A stretch of 36,818 bases of DNA from an uncultured Lachnospiraceae bacterium. GTDB taxonomy: Bacteria; Bacillota; Clostridia; Lachnospirales; Anaerotignaceae. The stretch lies in NCBI GenBank assembly GCA_944380405.1, contig CALWHO010000050.1, positions 1 through 36,818 of the forward strand. Reading direction: 5' to 3'. How positions within the stretch are numbered: the stretch's first letter is position 1; the number at the start of each line of letters is the position of its first letter. This document shows, piece after piece, positions 6,247-24,460 of this stretch. Under the pieces are notes generated by a model. It was not told where the DNA came from. It searched no databases and worked only from the letters and a program-made list of their open reading frames with translations. Position numbers and translations under genes: made by a program.

Positions 6247-6267
6247 AACATGGTAAAAAGAATTTAA

Positions 6268-6381
6268 AGTACCTGTATGACCGGCGGAAGTGGAGTTTAC
6301 CACAGGGAGTATGGGTGTTGTGTTAAAAAGCCGACCGCCTGGGCAGAAAAAATTTGTGTCCAAGGGTGTTCGGCTTTTTTT
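6268..6381 (+). ncRNA. ZTP (pfl) riboswitch with overlapping terminator
   Basis: The two conserved pfl-motif blocks are present: GACCGGCGGAAGTGGAG followed by ACCACAGGGAG (6279-6309), then AAGCCGACCGCCTGGGCA (6328-6344) after a linker. The aptamer senses ZMP/ZTP (AICAR nucleotides), which build up when formyl-folate is short. The second block can instead pair with CCAAGGGTGTTCGGC (6360-6374), which is followed by seven T, forming a terminator. Ligand binding would hold the block in the aptamer and permit read-through. This is a genetic ON switch, and it fits the downstream gene, whose enzyme consumes AICAR. Confidence 0.93.
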
Positions 6382-19985: not shown

Positions 19986-20159
19986 ATGAATAGTTCAATA
20001 AAAAGAGCTTTAATATCTTTGGCAGTATTTGCTGTAATTTTTGCTTTGTCAGATGTTTTAATAAGCTATAAAAGCTATGATGTATATGTAGAAGCCATTA
20101 GATTTTTAGCTGCTGTTATAGGTGCAGGATGTTACTATATAGGAAGCAATAAATATTAA
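19986..20159 (+). CDS. 57-residue small membrane protein
   Basis: A short frame starts at ATG 19986, six bases after AGGTGGTG (19972-19979), and ends with TAA at 20157-20159. The protein starts MNSSIKRALISLAVFAVIFA, and has two hydrophobic segments (about 8-27 and 37-53) separated by SYKSYDVYVEA, with a short polar tail. It follows the MATE gene by 18 bases and precedes a strong terminator, so it is the second gene of that transcript. A role as an accessory peptide to the exporter is conceivable from position only. I recognise no family. Confidence 0.7.
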   Translation: MNSSIKRALISLAVFAVIFALSDVLISYKSYDVYVEAIRFLAAVIGAGCYYIGSNKY

Positions 20160-20174
20160 ATATTAAAAAATAAA

Positions 20175-20205
20175 AAAGCACAGAATATTAATTCTGTGCT
20201 TTAAA
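20175..20205. terminator. terminator after the MATE operon
   Basis: AAAGCACAGAAT (20175-20186) pairs perfectly with ATTCTGTGCTTT (20191-20202) around a four-base loop. A-rich sequence upstream makes it look bidirectional. Confidence 0.85.
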
Positions 20206-20230
20206 ATATTTATAAAATTTTAAATATAGC

Positions 20231-20461
20231 TGAAAGGTTTGGAAAACAAATTGTCAGTAAGTTTGCTAAAGCAAACTCCAGCCACAAGCGGCTGTCCGCC
20301 TGTCTTGGCGGTACTTAGTTTTCCAACCAAAATCCGCAGGAAAGCACCCGATGAACAAGGGCAGCGAAGCTGTTTTGCGTAAGCAAAATGCCGACTGAAT
20401 TTACTTCCGACGAGGAAAAAAGGGAGTTTCGAGGCATTTATGCTGATGGAACTCCCTTTTT
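20231..20461. other. compact multibranched structured element, non-coding RNA or repeat
   Basis: This 353-base gap (20160-20512) contains a GC-richer block packed with inverted repeats. An outer stem, 20236-20247 with 20318-20328 (one bulge), encloses three hairpins: 20260-20266/20271-20277, 20279-20283/20290-20294 and 20296-20300/20307-20311. This makes a cloverleaf-like four-way junction. A second part has 20362-20365/20369-20372, TTTTGC-GTAA-GCAAAA (20373-20388, a GNRA loop) and TTCC/GGAA (20405-20417). It ends in a 12-pair hairpin, 20417-20428/20450-20461, followed by T on the plus strand and by six T on the other. The minus strand is open for 79 codons (20459-20223) but has no start codon with a ribosome site. 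It could be a structured RNA or a MITE/REP-like repeat. I recognise no Rfam family. Confidence 0.6.
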
Positions 20462-20478
20462 ATACTTCTGTCTTCTCG

Positions 20479-20507
20479 TCAAAGACTTGAATGGAATGAG
20501 TCTTTGA
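20479..20507 (-). terminator. hairpin after the DUF1015 gene, possible weak terminator
   Basis: TCAAAGACT (20479-20487) pairs with AGTCTTTGA (20499-20507) around 11 bases, six bases beyond the DUF1015 stop codon on the minus strand. No T tract follows directly. The next hairpin with a T tract is the 20417-20461 stem of the structured element, which may be the real stop. Confidence 0.4.
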
Positions 20508-20512
20508 TGAAG

Positions 20513-24207: not shown

Positions 24208-24460
24208 AAATCCCGTCCCAAAACAATAATAGTTTGGGACGGGACATTAACCCGCGTTGCCACCCAGATTGCCATTTTTTAAAATAAAAAATGACCTCTT
24301 AATTTAGTAAGCTGTAAAGGGCTTTCCCTTCCGATTCATCACCGGCAGCTGCAAAAGTGGAACACCTTATACACATATCGGTTTGCACCAAACACCGACT
24401 CTCTGAAAAGCTTTTAAGGCTTATTTTTTGTAAAACGCTTATTTTTCTCTATAAAATTGA
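24208..24460 (-). ncRNA. T-box riboswitch for tRNA-Ser, upstream of serC
   Basis: On the minus strand the leader has the stem I elements AGAGAGTCGG and TTTGGTGCAAACCGA (about 24405-24380). A TTCCAC stretch follows at 24362-24357, in which TCC (24361-24359), a serine codon, sits in the specifier position. The T-box GGGTGGCAACGCGGG (24267-24253) follows. TGGC fits tRNA-Ser, whose discriminator base is G. The alternative terminator is a 12-pair GC-rich stem, 24244-24233 with 24222-24211, followed by seven T. Uncharged tRNA-Ser would stabilise the antiterminator and switch on serC, serA and DUF1015. This element fills most of the 512-base gap 24151-24662. Confidence 0.95.

What the first reader, a model, noticed from the sequence alone, without database searches (positions are those of the whole stretch)
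20231..20461. Compact multibranched structured element between the MATE and serine operons
Seen directly: a cloverleaf-like domain (outer stem 20236-20247/20318-20328 with three inner hairpins), a second domain with a GNRA-capped stem (20373-20388) and a closing 12-pair hairpin with T tracts on both strands. The block is clearly GC-richer than the AT-rich flanks and every hairpin has a short loop. The minus strand also stays open for 79 codons without a usable start. Either a structured regulatory RNA or a non-autonomous repeat is implied; I could not match it to a known RNA class. Peptides from such frames may be annotated as short hypothetical proteins in related genomes, but I cannot verify that here.
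Basis: partly seen in the sequence, partly recalled or inferred. Interest (0 to 1): 0.62.

Follow-up and report, generated by a model that had tools for sequence, protein, structure and literature searches.

The report
Hairpin-built mobile repeat targeting transcription terminators
The block is one of about 70 copies in this Clostridia genome of a short, protein-free jumping DNA element made of interchangeable hairpin modules, which inserts at the stop signals of genes and often duplicates the stop-signal hairpin; it matters because no enzyme that moves it, and no described element with this landing habit, was found.

Summary
The block is real and folds far better than chance (z = -6.3). It is one of about 70 dispersed copies in this genome: 42 full-length cloverleaf copies plus about 25 short ones. 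The family occurs in 29 of 58 genomes of the same GTDB family; no Rfam family matches. Structure is maintained: 25 of 33 pairs in the 5' domain and 14 of 30 in the 3' part show two-sided compensatory changes. It is mobile: five insertions present in one species are absent at the orthologous place in a sister species. Insertions sit at intrinsic terminators, and in 18 to 22 of 89 copies the terminator hairpin (17 to 43 bp) is duplicated on both sides. The cloverleaf is an optional module, present 0, 1, 2 or 4 times at orthologous insertions. No open frame or autonomous copy was found, and none of four tested mobilising enzyme families fits by distribution. Best reading: a BOX-like, non-autonomous modular element, new as a family, with an unusual terminator-hairpin target. 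The mobilising enzyme and any regulatory role remain unknown.

The parts
20175..20202 (.). Bidirectional intrinsic terminator hairpin AAAGCACAGAAT..ATTCTGTGCTTT, read as the left remnant of the target; the right-hand copy seen in other insertions is missing here
   Evidence: one search finds it as a minus-strand terminator (12 pairs); compare duplicated hairpins
20203..20228 (+). AT-rich leader of the element, shortened here; in G008 it is about 40 nt, approximately TCAGACTGTAGAAAAACTAGATTTTATACTTTTTTCAAGAAC
   Evidence: direct repeats of other copies end 39-42 nt upstream of GCGG
20229..20339 (+). 5' domain (model R1): outer stem 20239-20247/20318-20326 enclosing three hairpins, 20261-20276, 20279-20294 and 20296-20311. 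The three-hairpin block is an optional module
   Evidence: R1 match G000:C50:20229-20339, 124.9 bits, E 8.5e-28; covariation
20340..20394 (+). Optional two-hairpin module, with the GNRA-capped stem 20373-20388; present, absent or replaced by related modules in other copies
20395..20411 (+). Small hairpin, here degenerate; typical form in other copies CGGAATTCATTTCCG followed by ACGAGGAAAA
   Evidence: copies compared by eye
20412..20461 (+). Long A-tract/T-tract hairpin GAGGAAAAAAGGGAGTTTC..GGAACTCCCTTTTT; pairing kept while sequence varies (GC, CG, AU and UA at the same positions); near-invariant U-G pair
20475..20510 (+). Terminal hairpin CTCGTCAAAGACTTG..; in many other copies a 27-nt hairpin (GGGTGTCGA..TCGACACCC) and the second terminator copy follow, both missing here

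Best explanation
It is a non-autonomous, modular mobile DNA element of roughly 150 to 460 bp that encodes no protein and spreads by inserting at intrinsic transcription terminators. Shown: a multicopy family; species-specific insertions at orthologous loci; insertion at or inside terminator hairpins; duplication of the terminator hairpin in a fifth to a quarter of copies; gain and loss of the three-hairpin module within a fixed insertion; base pairing kept by compensatory changes. Inferred: an enzyme supplied in trans recognises the folded plus strand (RNA or single-stranded DNA) and joins the element at the base of a terminator hairpin. If the two strands are cut on opposite sides of the hairpin, gap filling duplicates it, giving a target-site duplication as long as the hairpin. 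Landing beside terminators is presumably tolerated because it lies outside coding sequence and leaves or adds terminator-like stems. The window copy is an older, eroded member, with its right-hand terminator copy and 3' end hairpin lost, between the MATE operon and the convergent DUF1015-serA-serC operon.
For: Copies: 76 BLAST matches and 71 model matches in the 2.03 Mb genome; 29 of 58 genomes of the family, several with 26 to 42 or more copies; 4 of about 240 genomes of other families in the order, all weak; 0 matches in 536 kb of other, mostly Clostridia, DNA as control. Empty sites: G006 lacks the 300-nt insertion shared by G005 and G002 inside the loop of GCCTGTA..TACAGGC, and a second insertion present in G005; G005 has the single hairpin AGCTGGAATCCCTAGGATTCCAGCT where G002 has two copies flanking the element; two more sites empty in G005. 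Flanking direct repeats: 18 of 89 exceed every one of 1068 mismatched-flank controls, at nearly fixed distances to the element ends, mostly 39-42 nt and 25-29 nt; both repeat ends lie within a few nt of the hairpin ends in most of 21 cases. The same terminators carry the element in opposite orientation in sister species. Covariation: 152 two-sided cells against 34 expected in the 5' domain, 90 against 21 in the 3' part. Module number 0 and 1 at one orthologous insertion, 1, 1 and 4 at another, 0 and 2 at a third.
Against: No mobilising enzyme identified and no copy with an open frame found. Three quarters of copies show no clear duplication, and three empty-site pairs show insertion without a whole-hairpin repeat. 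Correlation between repeat length and automatically called hairpin length is weak (rho 0.35, p 0.12, n 21). Some presence/absence differences could be deletions in the sister species. Flank genes were called by a simple open-frame rule; 11 of 90 copies appear between divergent genes.
Confidence: 0.78

Rival explanations
1. A structured regulatory or 3'-UTR RNA (terminator, stabiliser or small RNA), kept in many copies because it serves the neighbouring genes; mobility is incidental or ancient.
For: Strong covariation and a plus-strand bias (own genome 5' stems G-U 18 vs A-C 6; outer stem 15 vs 1; near-invariant U-G in the long hairpin); position directly at gene 3' ends, median 39 nt from the end of a downstream gene facing it; one ortholog pair shows a compensated stem change.
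Against: Insertions differ between sister species, orientation at the same terminator is not conserved, modules come and go at one locus; other ortholog pairs show pair-breaking changes; no family-wide conserved locus seen.
Confidence: 0.2
2. A group II intron-like or other reverse-transcribed element (bacterial SINE) that uses an RNA intermediate, as group IIC introns do at terminators.
For: Terminator stem-loop targeting is established for group IIC introns (PMC7161350, citing Robart 2007); folded plus strand; variable-length duplications.
Against: No reverse transcriptase (PF00078) in G000, G038, G041 or G043, all carriers with 11 to 71 model matches; no group II intron match in Rfam; group II introns do not duplicate their target (general knowledge).
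Confidence: 0.08
3. A REP/MITE-type element mobilised by an IS200/IS605 Y1 transposase or an IS110 transposase.
For: Hairpin-rich ends; strand-specific folding; Y1 genes present in 38 of 58 genomes.
Against: Y1 transposase not found in G008, G038 and G041, all rich in copies; IS110 above cut-off absent from most carriers; IS200/605 insertion makes no target duplication (general knowledge).
Confidence: 0.1
4. A Cas1-like integrase, which duplicates a palindromic repeat when it integrates a spacer.
For: Formal analogy: duplication of a 20-40 bp hairpin around an insert; Cas1 present in G000.
Against: Cas1 not found in G002, G005, G006 and G008, the genomes with the clearest hairpin duplications.
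Confidence: 0.03

Closest known systems
BOX elements of Streptococcus pneumoniae and relatives (boxA-boxB(n)-boxC)
   Same: Short, non-coding, dozens to over a hundred copies, composite of end modules and a middle module present in variable number at the same locus, predicted stem-loop RNA, target duplications reported (PMC3049150)
   Different: No sequence kinship shown (not compared directly); middle module here is a 63-nt three-hairpin cloverleaf nested inside a stem; insertion at terminator hairpins with whole-hairpin duplication; different host lineage
SPRITE of S. pneumoniae
   Same: Small repeat enriched at gene 3' ends, terminator-like (PMC3049150)
   Different: SPRITE is itself a terminator-like hairpin; here the element lands on existing terminators. 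No target duplication could be established for SPRITE
Group IIC introns
   Same: Recognise terminator stem-loops as target (PMC7161350)
   Different: No ribozyme family match and no reverse transcriptase in several carriers; duplications present here
REP elements with RAYT transposases; bcr1 of Bacillus cereus (from memory)
   Same: Small intergenic palindromic repeats moved in trans or of unknown mobility (PMC3733652 for REPs)
   Different: Larger and multi-module; Y1 transposases absent from several copy-rich genomes; a GTAG or CGTC tag was not tested formally

Membership tests
BOX-type modular repeat (as a kind) | Composite of end modules and a repeatable middle module varying in number at one locus | tested here: met
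   0, 1, 2 and 4 cloverleaf modules at orthologous insertions
BOX-type modular repeat (as a kind) | Structured, compensatory base pairing | tested here: met
Pneumococcal BOX family proper | boxA/boxB/boxC sequence homology | not tested
   No BOX reference sequence was compared; only Rfam, phage and plasmid collections were searched
MITE | Non-coding, dispersed, short | tested here: met
MITE | Terminal inverted repeats shared with an autonomous transposon | tested here: inconclusive
   Ends TCAG..CTGA give only a 4-bp inverted match; no autonomous copy seen among roughly 100 loci
MITE | Fixed-length target-site duplication | tested here: not met
   Duplications range from 17 to 43 bp and follow a hairpin
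Rfam RNA family | Score above gathering threshold | tested here: not met
Group II intron | Conserved ribozyme domains and co-occurring reverse transcriptase | tested here: not met
IS200/605 derivative | Co-occurring Y1 transposase | tested here: not met
   not found in G008, G038, G041

The most novel reading that the evidence does not exclude
A class of bacterial mobile element whose integrase chooses targets by structure, the terminator hairpin, and whose target-site duplication is the hairpin itself, with the element's own folded strand as the recognised substrate and an unknown enzyme.
Probability: 0.4. Interest if true: 0.78.

Novelty: new variant of a known kind. Interest (0 to 1): 0.6.

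Why it matters
BOX-like modular repeats have been known for decades without an identified mobilising enzyme (general knowledge). A family with species-specific insertions, clean empty sites and hairpin-length duplications offers a tractable system for finding one. It would also show how bacterial 3' ends and terminators are remodelled by mobile DNA. Terminator-hairpin targeting is a rare, potentially structure-guided target choice.

Tried and rejected
Coding on the minus strand: rejected, since the copies vary by non-coding modules and compensated stems. Known RNA class: rejected. Autonomous longer version: none among fetched loci, including the copy-rich G043 and G120. Reverse transcriptase, Y1 transposase, Cas1 and IS110 transposase as drivers: distributions do not fit. 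Internal sigma-70 promoter in the leader: a TATACT-like box is seen in the G008 leaders, but the window copy has no plus-strand promoter match and promoter-like sites are no more frequent than in shuffles; not claimed. Exact-pattern scans of genome contigs and viral contigs and phage and plasmid searches found nothing; the patterns were built on this species and may be too strict, and the window's near relatives may be left out of the contig scans. Strict proportionality of duplication length to hairpin length: not established. Ortholog pairs as a test of post-insertion selection on structure: inconclusive, three pairs only. In one search one pair was written one column off (13/46 instead of 13/45); this lowers, not raises, the score.

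Full report
What was claimed and what is there. All described features are present. The plus strand folds to -91.4 kcal/mol, 6.3 standard deviations below dinucleotide shuffles; the minus strand reaches z -3.3. Pfam confirms the neighbours: MatE to the left; DUF1015, a 2-hydroxyacid dehydrogenase and a class-V aminotransferase, convergent, to the right. The block should be read as about 20175-20510: it starts at a terminator hairpin and ends 2 nt before the DUF1015 stop codon.

Copy number and range. BLAST of the block against its own genome gives dozens of places at 80-90% identity. A covariance model of the 5' domain (R1) gives 71 matches: 42 full-length with the cloverleaf, most of the rest a 46-nt short form in which the outer stem closes a small loop. 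In the GTDB family, 29 of 58 genomes have matches, for example G043 42, G008 40, G002 27 and G038 26. Outside the family, 4 of about 240 genomes of the order have weak matches. 536 kb of other, mostly Clostridia, DNA gives none, a useful negative control. Rfam has no matching family.

Structure is conserved. In 36 copies of this genome, 23 cells of the 5' domain show changes on both sides against 4.4 in shuffles. Across genomes it is 152 against 34, with 25 of 33 pairs affected. In the 3' part it is 14 of 30 pairs and 90 cells against 21, with GC, CG, AU and UA all used at one position. Shuffles ignore relatedness, but the slid controls, which keep it, are far lower. G-U outnumbers A-C in the stems read on the plus strand: outer stem in this genome 15 to 1 (from the per-pair list), 5' stems in this genome 18 to 6, long hairpin 10 to 3 plus a near-invariant U-G. 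The terminal hairpin shows no clear bias (3 to 2). This points to a folded plus strand, RNA or single-stranded DNA; it does not tell which.

Mobility. Sister species G002, G005 and G006 share gene order at about 92-95% identity, so insertions can be compared site by site. (a) G005 and G002 carry a 300-nt element in the loop of a GCCTGTA..TACAGGC terminator; G006 has the intact terminator. (b) G005 has another insertion absent from G006. (c) G002 has an element between two copies of AGCTGGAATCCTAGGATTCCAGCT; G005 has one copy and no element. (d, e) Two more G002 sites are empty in G005. At two further terminators G002 has the element in the opposite orientation to G005 and G006, which suggests repeated use of the same target, though inversion is not excluded.

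Target and duplication. Aligning left and right flanks of 89 copies, 18 exceed all of 1068 mismatched-flank controls and 22 exceed the 99th percentile. The repeats mostly end 39-42 nt before GCGG and begin 25-29 nt after the terminal hairpin, which fixes the element's ends. The repeated sequence is a terminator hairpin; its ends agree with the folded hairpin within a few nt in most of 21 cases, but a rank correlation of lengths is weak (rho 0.35, p 0.12). Other insertions lie beside or inside a hairpin without repeating it. Duplication is therefore frequent, not universal.

Modules. At one orthologous insertion G005 has no cloverleaf and G006 has one. At another G005 and G006 have one and G002 has four exact 63-nt copies. 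At a third G006 has none and G002 two. The cloverleaf also occurs in tandem in G038 and in another context in G043. This is the behaviour of boxB in pneumococcal BOX elements (PMC3049150).

Mechanism. Shown: copies differ in presence between close relatives, lie at terminators, keep their fold, and carry no gene. Inferred: an enzyme in trans acts on the folded strand and on a hairpin target, and strand cuts on opposite sides of the hairpin produce its duplication. Reverse transcriptase, Y1 transposase, Cas1 and IS110 transposase were checked across 58 genomes and each is missing from some copy-rich genomes. Absence today does not exclude a lost enzyme, and some genomes are incomplete.

Relation to known kinds. 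It works like a BOX element or MITE. It is not filed as a member of the pneumococcal BOX family, whose sequences were not compared, nor as a classical MITE, since a fixed-length duplication and long terminal inverted repeats were not found. Terminator targeting has a precedent in group IIC introns (PMC7161350), from which it differs by lacking a ribozyme family match and a reverse transcriptase. A limited literature search found no description of this family; most subscription papers are not in that library.

The window copy. It has a shortened leader, the left terminator hairpin, one cloverleaf, one two-hairpin module and the terminal hairpin with one mismatch. It lacks the 27-nt end hairpin and the right terminator copy, so it looks like an older, eroded insertion.

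Noticed in passing
L201:13795-13973 (G002 C87) and dozens of places in G002, G005, G006 and G007: A second high-copy repeat of about 180 nt beginning near CCCCTTAAGAAAACA and lying next to a terminator-like hairpin; MITE-like.
   Followed up: no
window 24232-24444 (-): T-box leader upstream of the serC-serA-DUF1015 operon (Rfam RF00230, 96.7 bits).
   Followed up: no
window 6267-6351 (+): ZMP/ZTP riboswitch (Rfam RF01750, 58.7 bits).
   Followed up: no
L237:1997-2100 (G154, another family of the order): A weak match to the cloverleaf module in sequence whose downstream translation by eye looks like an Rhs-type repeat protein.
   Followed up: no
L231 (G038 C14), around 1986-2221: Head-to-tail array of the three-hairpin module without the usual element ends, suggesting the module can multiply on its own.
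   Followed up: partly
window 19986-20159 (+): 57-residue open frame after the MATE gene, hydrophobic by eye; no Pfam match.
   Followed up: partly
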